DNA of 64,000 nucleotides, from positions 62,001-126,000 of the forward strand of contig POWY01000001.1 of NCBI GenBank assembly GCA_003044455.1. Direction: 5' to 3'. The notes under the pieces are model-generated. The model ran no database searches, had not been told where the DNA came from, and saw only the letters and a program-made list of their open reading frames with translations. The translations under genes and the position numbers were made by a program. The stretch is from Neisseria bergeri (GTDB lineage Bacteria > Pseudomonadota > Gammaproteobacteria > Burkholderiales > Neisseriaceae). Below are positions 3,980 through 27,549 of the stretch, one piece after another (within the stretch, counting starts at the first letter, position 1; each line of letters starts with the position of its first letter).

Positions 3980-5566
3980 CTAGAGGAAGAAAATCATTGC
4001 CACGACGACGGCAATCACGCCGTAAATCGCCATCGGGATAACGGTTTTCTTGATAATCGCACCTTCGGAATTTTTCACGTCCAATACGGTACATACGGCG
4101 ATGATGTTGTTGAGGCACACCATATTGCCCATCGCGCCGCCGACGGATTGCAACGCCAGAATCAGGGTAACGGACAGGCCGGTATCCAAGGCGATTTGCT
4201 GCTGAATCGGGCCGAAGGTCAGGTTGGACACGGTGTTGGAGCCGGAGAAGAACGCGCCGATCGCGCCCAAATACGGCGAGAAGTAAACCCAGTGTTCGCC
4301 CGCCATTGCGGCAAATTCCTTACCGATGATTTTCACCATCGAATTGTCGCCGCCGACCAGCATCAGCTGAACCATAATCAGCGCGCCCATCAGGGCAAGC
4401 AGCGGTTTTTTGGTTTGATTGAAGGTTACGGCATAAATCGTCCAAGCATCTTTGAATTTGGTCTTATACAGCAGGATGCAGATCCAAACGGTAAAGACAA
4501 ACGGAATCCAAGCGGGAACGTACAGCGTTTGGTAGGACGCGCTGACATCTTGTCCGAAAATATTGCCGAAGGTAATTGTCAGGGAGTCGCTGACGGTAAT
4601 TTTGGACAAATCAAACGGCAGTTGGAAGCTGAACCATTCTTCTTTGCTGGTCAAAATGCCTTTGATGCCAAGTTGTTTGATGCGCGTAACCACCAGCATA
4701 CCGATCAGCATACCCAAAGGGGCGAGTGCTTTGGCGACTTGGGCGAACGGCACTTTTTCGGCATTCGGGTCTTTGGCGTGGTCTTTGCTCAAGCCCCAGC
4801 CTTTATTAGCTGCAAATACGGAAAACATCAGACCGATTGCGCCGGCAACCAAAGAAGGAAATTCTTCGTTGACCATTGCCAATGCGACATAGGGAAGGGT
4901 ACAGGAGAAAACGGCAATGGCGACGAAGCCCAAGTTTTTGCGGATTTCAGACCAAGGTACGATAAAACTCAAGCCGATGACGGGGATGACGAAACCTGCG
5001 AAGAAGTGCATCACGCCGGTCTGCCTGCCGATGGCGAGGATATCTTCGGCACTCAGGTTCAGCGGTGCAAAACCGAACCAAGTCGGCGTACCGACCGCAC
5101 CGAAAGAGACGGGGACGGAGTTCATCACCAAAGTGAAAATCGCTACTTTCAACGGATTGAAGCCCAAGCTCATCAGAATCGGCGCGGCAATCGCGGCAGG
5201 CGTGCCAAAGCCGGATGCGCCTTCAATCATAAAGGCAAACGACCAGCCGATAATCATCAGTTGCGCTACGGGGTTCGGGCTGATGGTCGCCAGCCATTTG
5301 CGGATGACATCGATGCAGCCCGTGGTTTCCATCATACGGTTGAACATAATCGCGCCGAAAATCACGGTAATCGGCGTGAGCGTTTTGACGAGGCCGGAAG
5401 CGGCGGTGGCGTTGAGCAGCATTCCCGCATCGCCGAAGTAGAAAAGTTTGATGGCGTAAATCAGCACTGCGGTAATCGGCAGTGCGACGTAGGAAGGCAT
5501 ACTGTTTTTTTTCACCATCAGCCAAATCAGCAGGACGATGGGGAATATGCTGAGGAAAAGTGCCAT
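3980..5566 (-). CDS. lldP: L-lactate permease
   Basis: A 528-residue inner-membrane transporter of the LctP/LldP family with about 12-14 hydrophobic helices, importing lactate with protons. Family landmarks include the EGASGFGTPAAIAAPIL segment near 115-130 and the conserved FFSGSNTVSNLTFGP loop in the last third. In meningococcus and gonococcus this transporter (lctP) supports growth on host lactate and contributes to colonisation and serum survival. AAGGA lies 7 nt before the ATG. The upstream region holds a GntR/FadR-type palindrome (5660-5676). It is monocistronic. Confidence 0.96.
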   Translation of the reverse strand: MALFLSIFPIVLLIWLMVKKNSMPSYVALPITAVLIYAIKLFYFGDAGMLLNATAASGLVKTLTPITVIFGAIMFNRMMETTGCIDVIRKWLATISPNPVAQLMIIGWSFAFMIEGASGFGTPAAIAAPILMSLGFNPLKVAIFTLVMNSVPVSFGAVGTPTWFGFAPLNLSAEDILAIGRQTGVMHFFAGFVIPVIGLSFIVPWSEIRKNLGFVAIAVFSCTLPYVALAMVNEEFPSLVAGAIGLMFSVFAANKGWGLSKDHAKDPNAEKVPFAQVAKALAPLGMLIGMLVVTRIKQLGIKGILTSKEEWFSFQLPFDLSKITVSDSLTITFGNIFGQDVSASYQTLYVPAWIPFVFTVWICILLYKTKFKDAWTIYAVTFNQTKKPLLALMGALIMVQLMLVGGDNSMVKIIGKEFAAMAGEHWVYFSPYLGAIGAFFSGSNTVSNLTFGPIQQQIALDTGLSVTLILALQSVGGAMGNMVCLNNIIAVCTVLDVKNSEGAIIKKTVIPMAIYGVIAVVVAMIFFL

Positions 5567-19796: not shown

Positions 19797-20894
19797 TTAT
19801 TCCGGATCGTCTGTAAACGCGTTCGCCCGAAAAATAGGTACGAATGTCAGCAGGTAAAGCACGAACACGGCGGCGGTCAGAATCGCGGGGACGGTGATGA
19901 AGAATATCGGGTTCACGTTCATTAAAACAGCGCGCGAGACGGCGGCGGCGAAGAGGATGGGGACGGCGATGCGGCAGAGTTTGGGGTAGTCGAGTTTGGT
20001 AAAGCCGCTGTGCCACAGTCCGGCAGTCAGCCACACCATCATCACGCCACCCATCATGCCGCCGAGGGTAATCAGGTGCAGGGGGGCGGAGGCGGGCAGG
20101 TTTTGCAGTTTCGCCGCGCCTGCCCACAGATAGCCTACGGCGGCAAAGAGTTGGAGCAGGTAATAGGTGCGGACGTAGTGTTTGCGCAGGAGTTCGTGAT
20201 GGTGCAGTTCGCGCAGCTTGGCGAGCAGGATGAAGCCGACGGCAAGCGCGGTAAAGCCGGCAGTTTGTGCAGGCAGCCAAAGTTCGGCGGCGGCGTGCAG
20301 CAGCAAGAAAGTAATAGCAATGTTTTTATAAACGATATTTGGAATAAAAACAGGGTCTTTCAGACGGCATTCTTTCAGGGCTTCCGCACCCAAGAGGACG
20401 CTGACGCGGACGGATACGAACATGACTGCCGCCATGTTCAGATGCACTTGCGCACGCAGCAGGTTCAAATCGCCGCTGACGGCATAGGCCGTCTGAAAAA
20501 CGGTAAATGCGGCAAGCAGCATCAACAGGGCAAAGTTGTCGGTGTTACGGTCGAGCCAAATCAGCCAGGCGCAGAACAGCAGCAACACCAGCCAATAGGC
20601 GGCGACGAAAAACGAAGCGGTTTGCGGCGCAAACGGCAGCAGGGCGGATGCGGCGAGCAGTAATGCCGCCATCAAAGTAGCGACAGGTTTCAGACGGCCT
20701 TGATAGCCCGTCCATTCAAGCATAGCGGCAGTCAGAAAACCGCCGTATGCCGCAGGCAGCATGAGTTCTAAGAAGATTTGGCGGTGCAAAATGACGGCAC
20801 TAGGGCTGATGAAAAACACCAACGCGCCGAGTATGGCAAGTACCGCCGCGCCGACGAAAAACGGCCGCATAGGGTGGGTGAAAAATTTATTCAT
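19797..20894 (-). CDS. nnrS: NnrS family heme-copper membrane protein
   Basis: 365 residues with about 12 hydrophobic helices. NnrS proteins are membrane heme- and copper-binding proteins linked to nitric oxide metabolism and protection from nitrosative stress. Family cues are the N-terminal HPMRPFFVGAA motif and conserved histidines in ELHHHELLRKHYVRTYY and LHLITLGGMMGGVM. Neisseria denitrifies through AniA and NorB, so NO defence fits, as does the nos cluster in this window. It is the last gene of a minus-strand run, but cadD upstream is foreign and 121 bp away. Confidence 0.88.
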   Translation of the reverse strand: MNKFFTHPMRPFFVGAAVLAILGALVFFISPSAVILHRQIFLELMLPAAYGGFLTAAMLEWTGYQGRLKPVATLMAALLLAASALLPFAPQTASFFVAAYWLVLLLFCAWLIWLDRNTDNFALLMLLAAFTVFQTAYAVSGDLNLLRAQVHLNMAAVMFVSVRVSVLLGAEALKECRLKDPVFIPNIVYKNIAITFLLLHAAAELWLPAQTAGFTALAVGFILLAKLRELHHHELLRKHYVRTYYLLQLFAAVGYLWAGAAKLQNLPASAPLHLITLGGMMGGVMMVWLTAGLWHSGFTKLDYPKLCRIAVPILFAAAVSRAVLMNVNPIFFITVPAILTAAVFVLYLLTFVPIFRANAFTDDPE

Positions 20895-20980
20895 GGCTTG
20901 GCTTGATTCTGCATGAAGATGCTTTCGGATATGGATTTATTGGGCGGACAGGGCTGTATCTTTTGCCAAAGAGGCAAGCC

Positions 20981-21020
20981 GCAAGGTTTGTCAGATACTC
21001 AAATGCCCGTATCATTCATA
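20981..21020. repeat. Left copy of the flank duplicated around cadD
   Basis: GCAAGGTTTGTCAGATACTC and the following 20 bases recur almost identically at 21797-21836. A weaker extension (AAAGAGGCAAGCC) is shared by 20968-20980 and 21722-21734. The cadD stop codon lies inside this copy. Confidence 0.8.
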
Positions 21021-21630
21021 TTATTGATATTATTGTTCGAATTGTATTATTTTCAATAATAATAAATAACCCTAAACCAATATAAATAACAGCCATTATC
21101 CAACGACTAAACTTCTCTATAATTTCACCAACACCTGAAATATTAGCCAATCTTTGTGCTGTATATACTAAAACAAAAATCAATATTAAAAATACAAGAA
21201 GAGTAACTAATAAGTCGACAAGATCTAAAGTCACAAAGTAAGGAACAAAAAGTCCAATATTATCTGCACCACAACTAGCAACTGTAACCAAAGCAACAAT
21301 ACCGACTAATTTTGACAACCCTTTTTCATCCAATTCTTTTTTAGCTCTTTTTTCGCCCTCACAATCGTCGTAAATAGCAACTTTAATACCTAAGTAAATC
21401 GGTATTAAACCTAATAAACCCAACACCCATTTTTCCGGAACATAATTCAAAACAAAAGCTAGAAATAAACTAACTAATATTAAAATTACAGAACCTAAAT
21501 ATTGTCCGATATAAATATCTCGATATTCTTTTCTAGTATTTGCTCTAGCAAAAAATATTAATAGTATTACCAACAAATCTACTGCTGTAGCAATATATAA
21601 AACAGCAGCAGTAATCACAGTCGAAAACAT
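21016..21630 (-). CDS. cadD: Cadmium resistance transporter, CadD family
   Basis: 204 residues with five to six membrane helices. The sequence closely resembles Gram-positive (staphylococcal) CadD as I recall it: FSTVITAAVLYIATAVDLLV, FFARANTRKEYRDIYIGQYL and the central VTVASCGADNIGLFVPYF loop with a likely metal-binding Cys/Asp. It would export Cd2+ or a similar cation. The start is the ATG 6 nt after GAGG; the frame is open upstream only because it runs into a copied piece of the neighbouring ATPase gene. It is conspicuously AT-rich against its surroundings and flanked by duplicated sequence, so it was acquired from outside the genus. Confidence 0.85.
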   Translation of the reverse strand: MFSTVITAAVLYIATAVDLLVILLIFFARANTRKEYRDIYIGQYLGSVILILVSLFLAFVLNYVPEKWVLGLLGLIPIYLGIKVAIYDDCEGEKRAKKELDEKGLSKLVGIVALVTVASCGADNIGLFVPYFVTLDLVDLLVTLLVFLILIFVLVYTAQRLANISGVGEIIEKFSRWIMAVIYIGLGLFIIIENNTIRTIISII

Positions 21631-21640
21631 AAAGCACCTC

Positions 21641-21704
21641 ATAATGAATCCCCTGCCTCCTTGGCACCACGGCTTTTTCAAAAACCGAATCGCGTTCGGA
21701 TAAC
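21641..21704 (-). pseudogene. Duplicated 3' tail of the ABC ATPase gene
   Basis: Degenerate copy of the last about 65 bp of the ATPase gene at 21838-21904 (shared GAATCCCCTG, CACCACGGCTT and TTCAAAA blocks). It is fused in frame ahead of cadD but has no start of its own. It marks the right edge of the cadD insertion. Confidence 0.8.
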
Positions 21705-21748
21705 AGATTCGTATCTTTCGCTAAAGAGGCAAGCCTGCGGCTTGCTTA

Positions 21749-21784
21749 CCCTCTCCCTGGCCCTCGCCCCGTGGGAGAGGGTTA
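21749..21784. repeat. Inverted repeat CCCTCTCCC ... GGGAGAGGG
   Basis: ACCCTCTCCC faces GGGAGAGGGT around about 16 bp of GC-rich sequence, a type of intergenic hairpin found in many proteobacteria. It lies between the cadD insertion and the ATPase gene and could act as a transcription stop or pause for the ATPase transcript. Confidence 0.65.
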
Positions 21785-21796
21785 GGGAAACGAACC

Positions 21797-21836
21797 GCAA
21801 GGTTCGTCAGATACTCAAATGCCCGTATTATTCATA
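21797..21836. repeat. Right copy of the flank duplicated around cadD
   Basis: Partner of 20981-21020. It overlaps the last bases of the ABC ATPase gene, so this is probably the original location and the left copy is the duplicate. Confidence 0.8.
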
Positions 21837-22523
21837 ATAATGAATCCCCTGAAACTCCCTTGCCACCACGGCTTCTTCAAAAGCTGAATTGCGTTCTGAC
21901 AACGGCGTGGGCAGGGTTATCACGTTTTGCACGTTCATGCCCTTAGCGGAAAGCAGCATGATTTCATGGCTCAGGCGCGCGGCTTCGAAGCGGTCGTGCG
22001 TGACCAGCATACACGCCATGCCCTGCCGCTCGATTTTTTTCACCAGCATGGCAACCAAAATATCGCGCAAATCGCGGTCCAAACCGACAAACGGCTCGTC
22101 CAGCAAGGCAAGGTCGCAACCACACAGCAGCAGGCGCAGAAACGCCACCCGTTTCGCCATGCCGCCGGACAACTCGGTCGGATATTTGTTCAAATCGCCC
22201 GCAGTCAGCCCGACTTTCGCCGCCAGCGCGATGATTTCGTCCTCATCGGGTTTATCCATAAAAATGGCGATATTCTGCATCGCGGTCAGGTTTTCCGGCA
22301 GGCGGTTTTCCTGAAACAGAAAACCCGTTTTGCGAAAAGTATTGCGTATCGTGCCCGATTTCGGCGTTTCCAAGCCCGCAATCAGCCGCAAAACCGTCGT
22401 CTTGCCGCAGCCGCTCGGTCCGAACAAGGCCTTCACTTCGCCGTGTTGCAGGTTCAAACTGAAATCGCGCACGATGGGGTCGCGGAGAATTTCAAAACGC
22501 ACGTTTTCAAGACAGAGCATCAT
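21828..22523 (-). CDS. NitT/TauT-type ABC transporter ATP-binding protein
   Basis: 231 residues. Walker A GPSGCGKTT, Q-loop FLFQENRLPENL, signature LSGGMAKRVAFLRLL and Walker B LALLDEPFVGLD are all intact. It energises import through the adjacent permease. Its ATG overlaps the permease stop as ATGA, so the two are translationally coupled; GGAG lies just upstream. The family covers nitrate, sulfonates, thiamine precursors and similar small molecules; the substrate here is not determinable. The 3' end of this gene was partly duplicated when cadD inserted. Confidence 0.85.
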   Translation of the reverse strand: MMLCLENVRFEILRDPIVRDFSLNLQHGEVKALFGPSGCGKTTVLRLIAGLETPKSGTIRNTFRKTGFLFQENRLPENLTAMQNIAIFMDKPDEDEIIALAAKVGLTAGDLNKYPTELSGGMAKRVAFLRLLLCGCDLALLDEPFVGLDRDLRDILVAMLVKKIERQGMACMLVTHDRFEAARLSHEIMLLSAKGMNVQNVITLPTPLSERNSAFEEAVVAREFQGIHYYE

Positions 22524-23317
22524 CTTCTCCACGGCATAAACAAAATTTCCAAAGGCTTGGTAATCAGGTATTCAAACAGCGACACAAACACGATGACCAA
22601 CACCACATAAGCCATCACCGTTGAAGTCTCCAGCATCGCCCTCGCGTCCGCAATCCGCGCGCCCACGCCTTCGCTCGCGCCCAAGAGTTCCGCCATAATT
22701 ACCACCTTCACCCCCATCGCCACCGCCACGCCGATGCTGGAAATCACATAGCCCGTCAGATGCGGGATATACAGATAGCGGATTTTTTTCAGACGGCCTA
22801 ATTTATAAGCGTCAAACAACTCTTCATGCTGCTTGTTCACGCTCGCCATCCCGACCGCCGCACTCGCAAACGTCAGCGGCGCAACCAACACAATGATGGT
22901 AAACAGCACGCTCGGATTGCCGAAACCGAACCAAAACAACGCCATCACCACCCAAATAATCGGCGGCATCGCCAACAAAATCGTAATCACAGGCTTGAGC
23001 AACGCCATCGCCGTCTTAAAACTGCCCGCCACCAGCCCCGCAGCCAATCCCGCTACCAAAGCAATCGAAATCCCCACCACCGACCGCCACAGCGAAATGC
23101 CGATTTCGTTTTCCTGAAAATGTTTCAATAAATCAAACGACTTTTGAAACACCTCGACCGGCGCAGGCAGCATAAACTCGCCGAACACGGCGCTGCCCCA
23201 CGCCCACAACGCCACCACCACCATCGCCACGCCCAGACCGGCAAAGCCGCTCCAAAGGTAGTCGATGATGTAAAACACCGCGGGCTGCGGTTTGCGGATT
23301 TTGTCGGTTTTAATCAT
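22520..23317 (-). CDS. NitT/TauT-type ABC transporter permease
   Basis: 265-residue BPD-transporter inner-membrane protein with about six helices. The EAA loop that docks the ATPase is HEELFDAYKLGRLKKIRYLYIPHL. The start MIKTDKIRKPQ follows a region with a DUS of the AGGTCGTCTGAA type; the frame extends further upstream without a good start. It is coupled to the ATPase by a 4-bp overlap. The cognate binding protein probably lies 1.3 kb upstream at 24649, on the other side of an intruding DUF2971 gene. Confidence 0.86.
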   Translation of the reverse strand: MIKTDKIRKPQPAVFYIIDYLWSGFAGLGVAMVVVALWAWGSAVFGEFMLPAPVEVFQKSFDLLKHFQENEIGISLWRSVVGISIALVAGLAAGLVAGSFKTAMALLKPVITILLAMPPIIWVVMALFWFGFGNPSVLFTIIVLVAPLTFASAAVGMASVNKQHEELFDAYKLGRLKKIRYLYIPHLTGYVISSIGVAVAMGVKVVIMAELLGASEGVGARIADARAMLETSTVMAYVVLVIVFVSLFEYLITKPLEILFMPWRR

Positions 23318-23356
23318 GGTTTGAGTGTTGGTTGATGGGGATGGTTTGGGGACGAT

Positions 23357-23447
23357 AGGTCGTCTGAAAAATGGTAATTGGGTTAGACGGAACACAGTAA
23401 CCCAACGAAACGGTTTGATTTCCCAAATAGTGTTTTTCAGACGACCT
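23357..23447. repeat. Pair of AG-mucDUS (AGGTCGTCTGAA dialect) upstream of the permease
   Basis: AGGTCGTCTGAA at 23357-23368 and its inverse TTCAGACGACCT at 23436-23447. This 12-mer is the uptake-sequence dialect described for N. mucosa and relatives, not the ATGCCGTCTGAA used in the rest of the window. Confidence 0.75.
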
Positions 23448-23502
23448 TGGTTTGGAGTTTCAGGGGTATAACTACGCCAGCATACTGTTGCTGCTTATTA
23501 TT

Positions 23503-24222
23503 TTATAAATTGAATTTAAAATTTTCAGGTGGATCATACAACTTAGAACGTTTAAATTTAAATTCACCCGTCTCAAAAATTTGACCTTTATATGCCTCTT
23601 TCAAATATGGATTTATCCTAGGGTCAAACAGGAGATCCTTAAATAATTCTGTTGGTTTAATATCAAATTTAAAGATGTCTTCTTTGCATAACCCATCTTG
23701 TCCAAAATAGATTAAGCGTACTTCATTTTCATGTTGGAATGCTTCTCGTTTGTACAATAACGATTCTGCGATACCGCTTCCATCTGTTTTTAATAGTTCT
23801 ATTTTTTGAAATTTATTTATCAAATCCTTACTTGTCGCATACTGCACCTGACCAAGAAAACCACGAAATTTTGCAAACTTTCCGATTTCCTTATGTAAAG
23901 CTGCTAATAATTTTCTAGGTGTTGTAGAAACTCTAATACCATCTTTATTAGGAGAGTAAATGCGCCACATTGCATCTGATTCCCGATGCCAAGTCCAGCA
24001 TTGACCATATACTGAATTTCTCGCCTCTATGCTGGTTTCTTCTCCTGACATGATGAATGTTGAAGATAATAGGGCATTTTCAAACGGGTCATCCCATAAT
24101 TTGGGTTTTACCAAAGTCAATTTATTGGTATCTAAAATTTCTAAAAAACGGTGTATAGGAAAAATTCTATAAATTGTTGTATCTAATTTTTTGTGATCTA
24201 TAAATAGGAAATTCTTTTCCAT
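23503..24222 (-). CDS. DUF2971 domain protein
   Basis: 239 residues, visibly AT-rich. The family pattern is an N-terminal YRIFPIHRFLEILDTNKLTL strand-helix, then CWTWHRESDAMWRIYSPNKDGIRVS near 75-100 and a late NEVRLIYF strand. DUF2971 proteins are soluble proteins of unknown function that often sit in variable islands; some occur near phage-defence genes. It separates the ABC permease from its probable binding protein, in the same orientation, and is followed downstream by 185 bp containing foreign-dialect DUS. No partner gene for a recognisable defence system is visible. Confidence 0.75.
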   Translation of the reverse strand: MEKNFLFIDHKKLDTTIYRIFPIHRFLEILDTNKLTLVKPKLWDDPFENALLSSTFIMSGEETSIEARNSVYGQCWTWHRESDAMWRIYSPNKDGIRVSTTPRKLLAALHKEIGKFAKFRGFLGQVQYATSKDLINKFQKIELLKTDGSGIAESLLYKREAFQHENEVRLIYFGQDGLCKEDIFKFDIKPTELFKDLLFDPRINPYLKEAYKGQIFETGEFKFKRSKLYDPPENFKFNL

Positions 24223-24344
24223 AAATCATCCCTTTCAATAAAATATTGTATTGAACTTGTAGGTTGGATCATGACCTAACATTTCAGGCAATCCAACGGT
24301 TTTGTTGAGTTTAACAACTCAACCTACGGTTATCACCCACCGTC

Positions 24345-24439
24345 ATTCCCGCGCAGGCGGGAATCCAGAGGTTTGACGTTGCTGCAATTTTAAAACATTC
24401 CTGCAATATCAAAGACTGGATTCCCGCTTGCGCAGGAAT
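24345..24439. repeat. dRS3-flanked repeat
   Basis: ATTCCC-N8-GGGAAT at 24345-24364 and a copy with one changed arm base at 24420-24439 enclose about 55 bp, the same architecture as at 1277-1372. Confidence 0.8.
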
Positions 24440-24492
24440 GACGGCTCTTTGTGTACTGTTTGAACTATTATCTGATAGGCCGTCTGAAAAGA

Positions 24493-24559
24493 GTAGGTCG
24501 GATACTTGTATCCGACAGCCCCGTTTAGCCGAAATATCGAATTCAAGAATCCGACCTAC
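24493..24559. repeat. Inverted repeat with GTAGGTCGGA ends
   Basis: GTAGGTCGGA at 24493-24502 faces TCCGACCTAC at 24550-24559, with an inner GGATAC ... GTATCC hairpin. A related element (GTAGGTTG / CAACCTAC) lies at 24259-24327. Confidence 0.7.
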
Positions 24560-24579
24560 GCTGCTGATAATGTCCTTAT

Positions 24580-24638
24580 AGGCCGTCTGAAAATGACAAG
24601 TCAGATTTCATGGCTACTCCACTATTTTCAGACGGCCT
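24580..24638 (-). terminator. AG-DUS inverted pair downstream of the binding-protein gene
   Basis: AGGCCGTCTGAAAAT faces ATTTTCAGACGGCCT around about 29 bp, 11 bp past the stop codon of the binding protein. The stem is strong but no clear T run follows on the minus strand, so termination is likely rather than certain. Confidence 0.6.
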
Positions 24639-24648
24639 TTTTCCTCTT

Positions 24649-25626
24649 CTAAGCCAAGAAGAACCCGTTATCCGGCAGCTTGCCGCCCAAAAGTTTTGGG
24701 TTGAATTGCATCAGGATTTCGTAAAACTTCAAAATCTCGTTCTTCACTTCGCTGCCTTTGGTTACCGTTAGCCGCGCGCCGTCCAAGCCCATGACTAGGG
24801 CGGGTTCGGGGGCGGGGAGGTAGTTTTTGCCGATTTTCGCGGCGCTTTGGCGGTTGGCGAGTATCCAGTTGAGCGCGTTTTTCAAATCCTGATGGAAGAT
24901 GTCGAACTGTGCCTTGTGTGCGTGGAAATATTCTTCGTTGGCGATGATGCCTGCCATCGGAATCAGCGGTTTGGTGTCAAACGCCTGCCCCCATGCTTTC
25001 ACCAAGTCAAATCCACGCACGACGTTTACGCCCATGGTTTTGCCTTTAAGTAGGCTGGCTGTTGCCATCGGTTCGGGCAGGATGGTGGCGTGGTAGTCCT
25101 TGCTCAAAAATAGTCCGACTGCTTCGGGCGGCGTGGCGGTGTAAGTGATGCCGACTTTATGCGCGTCGATTTTCAGTTTTTTCAGCAAGGCTTGCAGCAC
25201 GATGTCGGGCATATCGTTTTTAAACGGCACGAGGATTTTTTTGCCGACCAAATCCTGCGGCGAGGCAATCGCGCTGCCTTTGCACATCAGCTGCGTGATG
25301 CCGTTGGTCAAAATATTCACCATGCCGACTTTCTGCCCTTGGTTGCGCAGGTTCACGCCGACATTGCTCGGACTCATCATGACTTTAAATTGTCCGCTTG
25401 CTACACCTGCGCGCAGTTGGTCGGGTGAACGCCAAATTTTCAGCGATACATCCGCCTGTTTCGCCAGCTTGCCTTGCAACGCCGCTACGGCAATGGTTAC
25501 GCTGGGCATTGCTGGTGCGCCGTACACGGTAAATTGTTCTTTACCGGCAGCCAACAATGAAGGCGAAACGCCTGCCGCTGCCAGAGCGGCGGTCATTTTT
25601 AAGAAATCGCGTCTTTTCATATCCAT
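24649..25626 (-). CDS. Tat-exported NitT/TauT-type substrate-binding protein
   Basis: 325 residues. The N-terminus MDMKRRDFLKMTAALAAAGVS is a twin-arginine signal (RRDFLK). The mature protein has the SBP_bac/NMT1-like fold: YGAPAMPSVTIAVAALQG, a KIWRSPDQLRAGVASGQF segment and a domain-crossing DLVGKKILVPF. It would capture a small ligand in the periplasm for the permease/ATPase at 21828-23317. AGGAG lies 7 nt before the ATG. It starts 58 bp after the TonB-dependent receptor stop and is probably co-transcribed with it under the Fur-box-like promoter. The ligand is unknown; metal chelate or cofactor are possibilities because of the receptor. Confidence 0.82.
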   Translation of the reverse strand: MDMKRRDFLKMTAALAAAGVSPSLLAAGKEQFTVYGAPAMPSVTIAVAALQGKLAKQADVSLKIWRSPDQLRAGVASGQFKVMMSPSNVGVNLRNQGQKVGMVNILTNGITQLMCKGSAIASPQDLVGKKILVPFKNDMPDIVLQALLKKLKIDAHKVGITYTATPPEAVGLFLSKDYHATILPEPMATASLLKGKTMGVNVVRGFDLVKAWGQAFDTKPLIPMAGIIANEEYFHAHKAQFDIFHQDLKNALNWILANRQSAAKIGKNYLPAPEPALVMGLDGARLTVTKGSEVKNEILKFYEILMQFNPKLLGGKLPDNGFFLA

Positions 25627-25683
25627 TTTTTATCTCCTAATTCTTAATAAGCCAGTGTAGGCATTCTTTCAGACGGCCTGATT

Positions 25684-27549
25684 TTAAAACGCCGCATGCA
25701 AACTCAACCAATATGTCCTGCCCGGTGCATACACTACGCTGGGCGACAGGGCGAGGACGTGGTCGCCGCTGATGTGTTCGGCGTATTTTTTGTTGAACAC
25801 GTTGTTCACGCCCAAGCGTAAGCCGTATTTGTCTTTGATGTTTACGCCTGCGTAAAGGTCGGCAACGGTAAAGCCTTTGGCGGCTTCGCGTTTGTCTATG
25901 CCCAGACCGCTTGCCGCGTCAAAATCGCCGCGCGTTTGTTTGGCGACAAAGCGTGTTGCGGCGCCGATGTTGTAGCTGCCGTGGGCAAAGTAGTTTTTGT
26001 AGTCGGCTTGGACGGCGGCTTCAAACGGACGGATTTGATAGAGCGGTCTACCGTCGGTTTCATTGTGTCCGTAGTTGTAGGTGGCTTTAATGCCTGCCGC
26101 CCAATGCGGATTGAAGTTGTAACGCGCGTAGGCCTGTGCGGTGAACAGGCGCGCATCGACATTGCGTGTGATGATGCCGTTGCCTTTGGATGAAATACCG
26201 CTTTGTCCGCGTGCGCGGTCAAAAATAATCAGGTCTTTGACTTTGTCCGCTACAAGCGTGCCGCCCACGTTCCATCCCGCGCCTGCGAGCGAGTTCATAT
26301 AGCCGTTGTAGTAGTCGTTGCGGCTGTCGGCGGTGAGCTTGATGCGGTTGTGTTTTTCAGTTTTCAGCAGGGGATTGCCTGCGATGGTGGCAAGCGAGTT
26401 GAAGCGTTCGGTGTTGTCGCCGATGCGTTCTAAGTGAGCAAGGGAAACGCTGTATTTTTGCGTTTCAGACGGCGTGAAATCGTATTTGAGTTCGCCCGAC
26501 AAAGCATGACGGCGCACTTTGCCGTTGAAGTCGTAGCCGTAATGGGTTTTCCAGATTTGTTGTGATGAGGCGAAGGCGAGATTGCGGTTCATCGGATGGG
26601 CGGGCTGCGCCGTATTTTTGCGTACGTCCGCTTCGTTGATTTCGTAGCTTAAGCCCAAGTCCAGTTTGTGTTGGTCGTTGAACTTGTAAGACAGGGTATC
26701 GGTAATGCGCCAGCGGTCGAGGTGTACATCGGCGAAACGGTAGCCGTTGAGGAAATCGCGCATGGGAGTGTGGGCGTTGCGCTCGCCGTTTTGGCTGTCG
26801 TTGCGGTAGCTGACGGCGGCGTTGTTGTGGAATTTGCCGAAATCCGCGTCGTGTTTGAGCGAGAAGTCGTACACTTTGCGGTCAAGTTCTACGAACACTT
26901 TCTGCTGCGTATTGTTTGGACGCAGGGAGTAATTGTCGGCATGGCGTTTGAGTTTGATGATGCCTGCTTCCGCGCTGACCGTATTGCTCAAATCTGCATT
27001 GCCCCAACGCGCGTTGAGTTTGGCGATGTGGCGTTCGGTGTCCAATGCGTCGTTGACGAACTGCGGTTGGCGGTCGTTGTTGATGTCGTCGTGCAGATAA
27101 GTGAGGCGGTATTCTTGATTTTCAGACGGCACGAAACCGAGTACCAAAGCCTGATTGAAGCGGCTGTATTTCCAATCGGTCTGATTGCCGTCGCCGTCTT
27201 TATAGCCGTTTGCCTTGGTATGGTTGATATTGGCAATGCCGTAAACATTCGCCCCACGCGCTTTCGCGGTAACGGAATTGTAAAAACTTTTGCCGTAAAA
27301 ACCGCTGTTTGCCTTCAGCGGACGGAAGGCTTGGTCTATGTTTTCGGTAACAAAGTAATGATCGCTGCGGTCGGAGCGGTCGAATTGGTTTTCGGGGAAA
27401 TAGCCTTGCGCTGCGGTCGGTGCAATCGGTTTGGGAGGGGAGAAGGTTTTGACGGATTGTATTTCTTCAGTATTTGCCAGTTGTTCTGCCCAAGATGGAG
27501 CAACGGACAAAACGGTCATCAAAGCCCATGTGAGAGTATTTAGTTTCAT
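25684..27549 (-). CDS. TonB-dependent receptor barrel, OprC/NosA-like, plug apparently missing
   Basis: 621 residues with signal peptide (cleavage after PSWA, about 21). From about residue 95 the sequence follows the beta-barrel of copper receptors OprC/NosA: NINHTKANGYKDGDGNQTDWKY, NVDARLFTAQAYARYNFNPHWAAG, and a C-terminal PGRTYWLSLHAAF ending in Phe for Bam recognition. Between the signal and the barrel only about 70 residues remain, where a plug of about 150 and a TonB box are expected. The frame is open, so this looks like an in-frame deletion or a divergent form. It resembles gonococcal Tdf-type receptors encoded beside ABC genes; exact identity is unsure. Confidence 0.75.
   Translation of the reverse strand: MKLNTLTWALMTVLSVAPSWAEQLANTEEIQSVKTFSPPKPIAPTAAQGYFPENQFDRSDRSDHYFVTENIDQAFRPLKANSGFYGKSFYNSVTAKARGANVYGIANINHTKANGYKDGDGNQTDWKYSRFNQALVLGFVPSENQEYRLTYLHDDINNDRQPQFVNDALDTERHIAKLNARWGNADLSNTVSAEAGIIKLKRHADNYSLRPNNTQQKVFVELDRKVYDFSLKHDADFGKFHNNAAVSYRNDSQNGERNAHTPMRDFLNGYRFADVHLDRWRITDTLSYKFNDQHKLDLGLSYEINEADVRKNTAQPAHPMNRNLAFASSQQIWKTHYGYDFNGKVRRHALSGELKYDFTPSETQKYSVSLAHLERIGDNTERFNSLATIAGNPLLKTEKHNRIKLTADSRNDYYNGYMNSLAGAGWNVGGTLVADKVKDLIIFDRARGQSGISSKGNGIITRNVDARLFTAQAYARYNFNPHWAAGIKATYNYGHNETDGRPLYQIRPFEAAVQADYKNYFAHGSYNIGAATRFVAKQTRGDFDAASGLGIDKREAAKGFTVADLYAGVNIKDKYGLRLGVNNVFNKKYAEHISGDHVLALSPSVVYAPGRTYWLSLHAAF

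What the first reader, a model, noticed from the sequence alone, without database searches (positions are those of the whole stretch)
20965..21904. Gram-positive-like cadD inserted with duplication of the neighbouring ATPase tail
cadD is strongly AT-rich and reads like staphylococcal CadD. It is bracketed by a degenerate copy of the last about 65 bp of the ABC ATPase gene on one side and a 40-bp near-identical flank (20981-21020 vs 21797-21836) on the other. This structure points to insertion by illegitimate recombination during transformation rather than by a transposon, and shows transfer across phyla into a commensal Neisseria.
Basis: partly seen in the sequence, partly recalled or inferred. 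Interest (0 to 1): 0.75.

Follow-up and report, generated by a model that had tools for sequence, protein, structure and literature searches.

The report
Staphylococcal cadmium pump spreading through Neisseria
A cadmium-pump gene that is 98-99% identical to a gene on staphylococcal plasmids, but without that gene's own switch, sits at the same spot in 14 of 46 Neisseria species genomes, including a gonococcus, and its copies differ far less than the genes around it, so it was likely picked up once, likely spread between species by DNA uptake and was then likely handed on to Haemophilus; it is predicted to protect the cells from toxic metals.

Summary
cadD (21016-21630, minus strand) is staphylococcal: eight Staphylococcus plasmids match exactly 21029-21642 at 98-99%, GC3 is 0.16 against 0.65-0.69 in five neighbouring genes, and the tree puts the 21 sampled Neisseria and Haemophilus copies inside a Staphylococcus plasmid clade. 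Only the coding fragment and its ribosome-binding site came over; promoter, operator and the adjacent cadX did not, and the last four residues and stop codon are not staphylococcal. The joints show no target duplication or inverted repeats.

It is not a private insertion. The same joints occur in 14 of 46 Neisseria genomes. Median synonymous divergence is 0.007 in cadD but 0.14 (ATPase), 0.23 (priA) and 0.32 (nnrS) in the same genomes, so cadD spread by recombination. In Haemophilus it is still wrapped in Neisseria DNA.

The duplication is larger than described: up to about 250 bp of spacer plus about 64 bp of ATPase tail, in tandem. It is too diverged to be as young as the cadD insertion, so it is probably not the insertion's scar.

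The parts
21016..21630 (-). cadD coding sequence, 204 aa, CadD-family cadmium/divalent-metal transporter
   Evidence: Pfam Cad and TIGR00779 over cut-off; at the 54 columns where 27 relatives agree it departs nowhere
21029..21642 (-). DNA of Staphylococcus plasmid origin: cadD body plus ribosome-binding site, nothing else
   Evidence: 98.0-99.0% identity to 8 Staphylococcus plasmid records, all eight matches ending at 21029 and 21642; more distant records end at 21032 and 21642
21021..21029 (.). 9-nt filler TTATTGATA at the 3' joint, a repeat of the adjacent TTATTG; repeated once more in G006
   Evidence: joint alignment
21016..21020 (-). cadD stop codon, supplied by Neisseria flank DNA; the last four residues (ISII) come from filler and flank
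   Evidence: sequence comparison with the Staphylococcus 3' end
20895..21020 (.). spacer copy 1 (nnrS side), shortened in this genome
21641..21704 (-). second, drifted copy of the ABC ATPase 3' end, directly upstream of cadD
   Evidence: the same in 13 of 14 Neisseria genomes apart from 1-2 nt, variant in G035
21705..21836 (.). spacer copy 2, between native ATPase tail and tail copy
   Evidence: elsewhere in the genome only three short pieces (21-28 nt) match
21828..22532 (-). intact ABC transporter ATPase gene
   Evidence: Pfam ABC_tran
19797..20894 (-). nnrS gene downstream; in G039 its ATG overlaps the ATPase stop codon (empty, spacer-free site)
   Evidence: Pfam NnrS
20488..20497 (+). 10-nt Neisseria DNA uptake sequence (motif recalled); further copies nearby at 20689 and 22788 on the minus strand

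Best explanation
This is a cadD gene of staphylococcal plasmid type, predicted to be a metal-efflux pump, that was likely joined once into a Neisseria chromosome between an ABC-transporter ATPase gene and nnrS and has since likely spread through the genus by transformation and homologous recombination. Shown by sequence: the 614-bp Staphylococcus match with its edges, the absence of promoter, operator and cadX beside it, the same joints in 14 of 46 Neisseria genomes, a cadD divergence 20 to 45 times below that of priA and the flanking genes, and Haemophilus copies embedded in Neisseria DNA. Inferred: (1) a fragment of a staphylococcal plasmid was end-joined at an AT-rich near-palindrome (CATTCATAATAATGAATC) at the stop codon of a second, already dead copy of the ATPase tail, so the working ATPase was spared; (2) without its own promoter, cadD is transcribed with the ABC operon and is no longer repressed by CadX; (3) uptake sequences 0.3 and 1.1 kb away let the block move between species; (4) a donor close to G037/G026 passed a Neisseria piece of up to about 1.8 kb to Haemophilus, joined at an 8-nt microhomology in an OsmC-family gene; (5) the protein exports Cd2+ and perhaps Zn2+, as its experimentally studied relatives do.
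For: Edges of Staphylococcus identity at 21029 and 21642 in the eight best Staphylococcus plasmid hits; best a 2835-bp plasmid with cadD next to an ArsR-family gene, 99.0%. Tree of 59 sequences: 21 Neisseria/Haemophilus rows form one clade (98/94) inside a clade with S. xylosus and two plasmid copies (100/100) (midpoint root, bootstrap not fully settled). Same joints in 14 Neisseria genomes, G035 with small changes. Median dS in 91 pairs of the same 14 genomes: cadD 0.007, ATPase 0.14, priA 0.23, nnrS 0.32. Mean pairwise identity 98.0-100% in the 100-bp windows from 21000 to 21699, 92-95% in the windows next to them, 85-98% farther out. Haemophilus: 8 of 11 genomes carry it; the ATPase piece is 97.9-99.5% identical to Neisseria G037/G026; 11 of 11 also have their own ATPase-nnrS locus elsewhere at 77-78% in the ATPase; nnrS is fused to an OsmC-family gene at TCATTTTG. 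No inverted repeat or target duplication at the joints and no transposase among the seven genes of 19797-27549 given to Pfam. Relatives: cadD deletion in Streptococcus agalactiae lowers metal efflux and resistance (PMC9474517, abstract and passages); CadX represses cadD in S. suis (PMC11430099, passages).
Against: No expression or phenotype data. On the minus strand no promoter-like site was found between cadD and 22000, and the one terminator-like site of the region (21699-21685, 5 pairs; 1.3 expected by chance) lies on that strand in the tail copy just upstream of cadD; both speak against simple read-through, and the gene could be silent. Within Neisseria median dN (0.0064) is about equal to dS (0.0071), so purifying selection is not visible, although counts are tiny. 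The age order of duplication and insertion rests on about 60 nt, and the G035 tail copy lacks two of the four drift changes. Transformation as vehicle is inferred from short recombined tracts and nearby uptake sequences, not observed. Three of 11 Haemophilus genomes lack it, and 3 of the 17 genomes of the Neisseria clade lack this type.
Confidence: 0.82

Rival explanations
1. One reading: cadD came in by illegitimate recombination and the ATPase-tail and flank duplication was made by that same event.
For: The repeats do bracket cadD, and 14 of 14 Neisseria copies have them.
Against: Copies made together with cadD should now differ by about 1%; the spacer copies differ by 9-16% and the tail by 4 substitutions plus a deletion, all four non-synonymous, while 16 native tails vary by 12 kinds of synonymous and 3 kinds of non-synonymous change (my exact test 0.009).
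Confidence: 0.2
2. A piece of another, unsampled Neisseria lineage (spacer, cadD, ATPase tail) was joined beside the recipient's own spacer and tail by insertion-duplication, so the second tail is foreign rather than old.
For: Gives exactly the order nnrS-spacer1-cadD-tail copy-spacer2-native tail-ATPase; the spacer copies differ by 9-16%.
Against: A working foreign ATPase tail should differ mostly synonymously; the 4 changes seen are all non-synonymous, and none of the 16 native tails compared is of that type.
Confidence: 0.3
3. cadD was inherited vertically by this Neisseria clade and is simply very conserved.
For: All 14 carriers fall in the group of 17 genomes with PriA at least 95% identical to the window's.
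Against: Synonymous sites of cadD are about 32 times less diverged than those of priA in the same genomes; 3 of the 17 lack it; Staphylococcus plasmids are 1% away.
Confidence: 0.02
4. A transposon, integron or plasmid integration delivered cadD.
For: The donor-type copies are on plasmids.
Against: The staphylococcal DNA is only 614 bp and holds nothing but cadD; no inverted ends or target duplication.
Confidence: 0.04
5. cadD is a silent passenger that hitchhiked with a selected neighbour.
For: No promoter-like site upstream on its strand and a weak terminator-like site there; dN about equal to dS.
Against: The identity peak is centred on cadD, not on a neighbour; the frame is open in 14 of 14 Neisseria and in the 6 named Haemophilus copies translated.
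Confidence: 0.15

Closest known systems
Staphylococcus plasmid cadD-cadX (p22194_1, pStO2014-01, Staphylococcus xylosus plasmids)
   Same: cadD coding sequence 98-99% identical, same ribosome-binding site
   Different: In Neisseria no cadX, promoter or operator beside it; last four residues and stop codon replaced; chromosomal and next to an ABC operon
Orphan cadD of Neisseria as reported in PMC11430099 (passages) and the N. meningitidis NZ05/33 gene 95% identical to S. agalactiae cadD in PMC9474517 (passages)
   Same: Orphan Cad gene of Gram-positive type in Neisseria; already in print
   Different: By its 95% match the NZ05/33 gene should be of the Streptococcus type, which in this genome is a second locus (L001) with 56% protein identity to the window's CadD; which type PMC11430099 means was not seen. 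The staphylococcal type, its joints, its sweep and its move to Haemophilus were not met in the listings
Exchange of chromosomal genes between Neisseria species by transformation, as for resistance alleles (search listing only)
   Same: Short homologous tracts crossing species borders
   Different: Here the cargo is a new gene from another phylum, not an allele

Membership tests
CadD transporter family (TIGR00779 / PF03596) | Score over curated cut-off along nearly the full length | tested here: met
   286.4 bits vs 181.65, residues 12-204; 247 vs 26.2 bits, residues 12-202
CadD transporter family (TIGR00779 / PF03596) | Family-conserved residues kept, e.g. SCGADN | tested here: met
   at all 54 columns where the other 27 sequences agree, and at every column where 25 or more of 27 agree, it has the same residue
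CadD transporter family (TIGR00779 / PF03596) | Confers Cd2+ resistance by efflux | not testable with these tools
   no phenotype here; known for relatives (PMC9474517, PMC11430099, passages)
cadDX operon | cadX (ArsR-type repressor) adjacent | tested here: not met
   spacer and nnrS lie downstream, ATPase upstream; the Staphylococcus plasmids have it. The rest of the genome was not searched for cadX
cadDX operon | operator/promoter upstream of cadD | tested here: not met
   Staphylococcus sequence stops at the ribosome-binding site
Transposon or IS insertion | target-site duplication or inverted ends | tested here: not met
   the two flank ends equal the two halves of the intact spacer-2 site, 0 bp lost or doubled
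Transposon or IS insertion | transposase within or beside the insert | tested here: not met
   the 614-bp insert holds only cadD; the seven genes of 19797-27549 given to Pfam include none
Recombinational spread across species | synonymous divergence far below that of core and flanking genes | tested here: met
   0.007 vs 0.14, 0.23, 0.32
Spread by DNA-uptake-sequence transformation | uptake sequences close by | tested here: inconclusive
   present at 20488, 20689, 22788, but they are frequent in Neisseria (recalled) and no enrichment was tested

The most novel reading that the evidence does not exclude
A staphylococcal plasmid gene is being relayed across human mucosal bacteria: it was captured as a bare coding fragment at the end of an ABC operon, in a dead duplicate of a gene tail that shielded the host gene, it swept through at least 14 Neisseria species almost unchanged, and it jumped on to Haemophilus. 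Together with an independent Streptococcus-type capture, it gives all 17 genomes of this Neisseria group, and none of the other 29 of the genus searched, at least one Gram-positive Cad pump, pointing to convergent selection for cadmium/zinc export.
Probability: 0.5. Interest if true: 0.75.

Novelty: new variant of a known kind. Interest (0 to 1): 0.6.

Why it matters
It gives a readable case of how a gene crosses a phylum border without a visible mobile element and then becomes common: both breakpoints are visible to the base, a donor-type plasmid is known to 99%, the spread can be read from divergence, and an onward jump to a third group still carries the second host's DNA as a label. It also makes selection for metal export on human mucosa testable in commensal Neisseria.

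Tried and rejected
Vertical inheritance of cadD: rejected on dS. Transposon: rejected on joints. The idea that the 40-bp flank is a dispersed repeat: rejected; of five matches of the spacer block in the own genome two are the two copies here and three are pieces of 21-28 nt. The idea that single-tail Haemophilus copies are the ancestral form: rejected; the four copies show three different crossovers between the two tails, so they are best read as collapses. Reverse direction, Haemophilus to Neisseria: rejected, because the Haemophilus copies carry Neisseria nnrS and ATPase pieces beside their own divergent locus. Solved-structure search: no CadD relative; three weak hits over 36-64 residues of unrelated proteins. 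Paper searches on cadD or cadmium with Neisseria, gonorrhoeae or Haemophilus parainfluenzae listed no account of the staphylococcal type or of the relay; of the listed papers only PMC9474517 and PMC11430099 were opened, and only in passages; the single hit (PMC8674272) was not opened. PMC11430099 calls CadD a P-type ATPase, which the family hits do not bear out. Not tried: structure prediction, metagenome scans, a search for cadX elsewhere in the genome.

Full report
What is there. cadD lies at 21016-21630 on the minus strand, downstream of a TonB receptor, substrate-binding protein, permease and ATPase, and upstream of nnrS. It is a full CadD-family protein. Its GC3 is 0.16 while nnrS, ATPase, permease, SBP and TonB receptor have 0.65-0.69.

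Origin. In the plasmid collection 26 records match. Two are gonococcal chromosomes; the next eight are Staphylococcus plasmids at 98.0-99.0%, and each of those eight matches stops at the same two bases, 21029 and 21642; more distant records stop at 21032 and 21642. The best, a 2835-bp plasmid from a human ear swab, has cadD followed by an ArsR-family gene. The tree puts 21 Neisseria and Haemophilus rows in one clade (98/94) within a clade (100/100) with S. xylosus CCM 2738 and two Staphylococcus plasmids (59 sequences, midpoint root). With the GC content this makes the direction Staphylococcus to Neisseria.

The joints. On the promoter side the Staphylococcus sequence ends ...GCACCTCAT and the Neisseria sequence goes on ATAATGAATCCCC, sharing two bases. 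On the other side Neisseria ends ...CCCGTATCATTCATA, then a 9-nt repeat TTATTGATA, then Staphylococcus TTATTGTT(C/T)G. The two Neisseria ends equal the two halves of the intact second copy of the site, with no base lost or doubled. The stop codon of cadD is in the Neisseria part and the last four residues differ from the staphylococcal ones, in a part of the protein that is not conserved in a 28-sequence alignment; the protein departs at none of the 54 columns where the other 27 agree. The ribosome-binding site is staphylococcal; promoter, operator and cadX are not beside it.

The duplication. In the 14 genomes the two spacer copies align over 70-254 bp at 84-91% identity; the window's copy 1 has shrunk. 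The order is nnrS - spacer 1 - cadD - tail copy - spacer 2 - native tail - ATPase. The tail copy differs from the native consensus by four substitutions, all non-synonymous, and an in-frame 3-nt deletion; native tails of 16 genomes vary by 12 kinds of synonymous and 3 kinds of non-synonymous change. cadD copies in Neisseria differ by at most 1.4% at synonymous sites. So the tail copy was most likely already out of use when cadD landed in it, which would explain why the ATPase is intact. G035 is an exception in detail: its tail copy lacks two of the four changes and its joints to cadD and to spacer 2 differ.

Spread. The Cad family was found over its cut-off in 17 of 46 Neisseria genomes: 14 have the staphylococcal type at this locus, 6 a Streptococcus type elsewhere, 3 of them both; G012 has one more match below the cut-off. 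At E 1e-60 none of the 37 genomes of other Neisseriaceae genera had a match. Four carriers could be named by exact containment of their locus in a named record: N. gonorrhoeae DSM 9188, N. elongata ATCC 25295, N. sicca C2010005502 and Neisseria sp. HMSC077D05. Two gonococcal chromosomes that sit in the plasmid collection also carry it; one was read and has an open cadD frame. Median dS in 91 pairs: cadD 0.007, ATPase 0.14, priA 0.23, nnrS 0.32. The identity peak has its edges at the cadD block. The 17 carriers of either type are exactly the 17 genomes with PriA at least 95% identical to the window's; of the other 29, 28 have PriA at 81% or less and one, an incomplete genome, gave no match. Among the 17, G022 and G039 keep the ATPase-nnrS locus without cadD; in G039 the ATPase stop overlaps the nnrS start, and G022 has a spacer but no tail copy. 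G019 has no close ATPase relative.

Onward to Haemophilus. In 8 of 11 genomes of the genus group of G084, and in H. seminalis, cadD lies in a Neisseria piece that starts inside nnrS at 20787; in five of the six named loci it reaches into the ATPase or permease gene (to 22327-22631), in L053 only to 21781. The ATPase part is 97.9-99.5% identical to Neisseria G037 and G026. All 11 genomes also have an ATPase of 77-78% elsewhere; in five of the six genomes an nnrS match lies right beside it, and H. seminalis (G088) showed neither. The nnrS end is fused to an OsmC-family gene at the shared 8-mer TCATTTTG, and in two of the six named loci a 323- or 447-bp stretch of Haemophilus DNA is repeated on both sides.

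A natural experiment. Of the nine Haemophilus genomes, four keep both tails (G085-G088), four have collapsed to one (G084, G091, G093, G094, with three different crossovers) and one has lost the ATPase side (G083). None of 14 Neisseria has collapsed. 0 of 14 against 4 of 8 gives 0.0096, but the genomes are not independent. The reading is that in Neisseria a collapse would put cadD on to the end of the working ATPase, whereas in Haemophilus the ATPase piece is dead. This is inference.

Function. Relatives export or resist Cd, Zn and other divalent metals (PMC9474517, PMC11430099; abstract and passages). In S. suis, raised cadD expression without cadX lowers peroxide resistance (PMC11430099), so an unregulated copy may carry a cost. 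Upstream of cadD on its strand there is no promoter-like site up to 22000, and one weak terminator-like site lies in the tail copy (both scans are near chance). Co-transcription with the ABC operon is the simplest guess but untested. Efflux in Neisseria is a prediction.

Known and new. That Neisseria has orphan cadD is in print (PMC11430099), and the N. meningitidis NZ05/33 gene in PMC9474517 is, by its 95% match to a streptococcal gene, of the Streptococcus type. The staphylococcal type, its joints, its sweep and its relay to Haemophilus were not found in the listings. The library lacks most subscription papers, so this is a limited statement.

Noticed in passing
L001:1480-2106 (G000 contig 3): A second Cad gene of Streptococcus type, GC 0.35, 94-95% DNA identity to streptococci among the fetched loci and 96% to Lactococcus plasmids, with its upstream region kept. 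Six Neisseria genomes have it, median dS 0.05 against 0.22 for priA, so it is an independent and older-looking capture.
   Followed up: partly
23503-24222: AT-rich DUF2971 gene (GC 0.32, GC3 0.25) lying between permease and substrate-binding protein of the same ABC operon; the matches of G014 and G022 skip it.
   Followed up: no
L144 (NZ_CP119140.1): Two gonococcal records of 2.17 Mb (NZ_CP119140, NZ_CP119142) are filed as plasmids in PLSDB; no gene is listed over cadD.
   Followed up: no
L053:3458-3780 and 4836-5158; L059:2649-3094 and 4836-5282: Haemophilus DNA of the OsmC-AraC region is directly repeated on both sides of the Neisseria piece, and the ATPase-side end of the piece varies between strains.
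   Followed up: partly
P0002: A protein cluster of 1328 member sequences has the Neisseria-type C-terminus (ISII) but the staphylococcal lysine where the Neisseria copies have arginine: perhaps close to the founder; its organism is not known.
   Followed up: no
L004 (G022): The Streptococcus-type Cad of G022 has an in-frame TAG near its C-terminus.
   Followed up: no
L070, P0016: Staphylococcal-type cadD on a 3.4-kb contig labelled Oxalobacteraceae and in a protein labelled Helicobacter pylori; contamination is possible.
   Followed up: no
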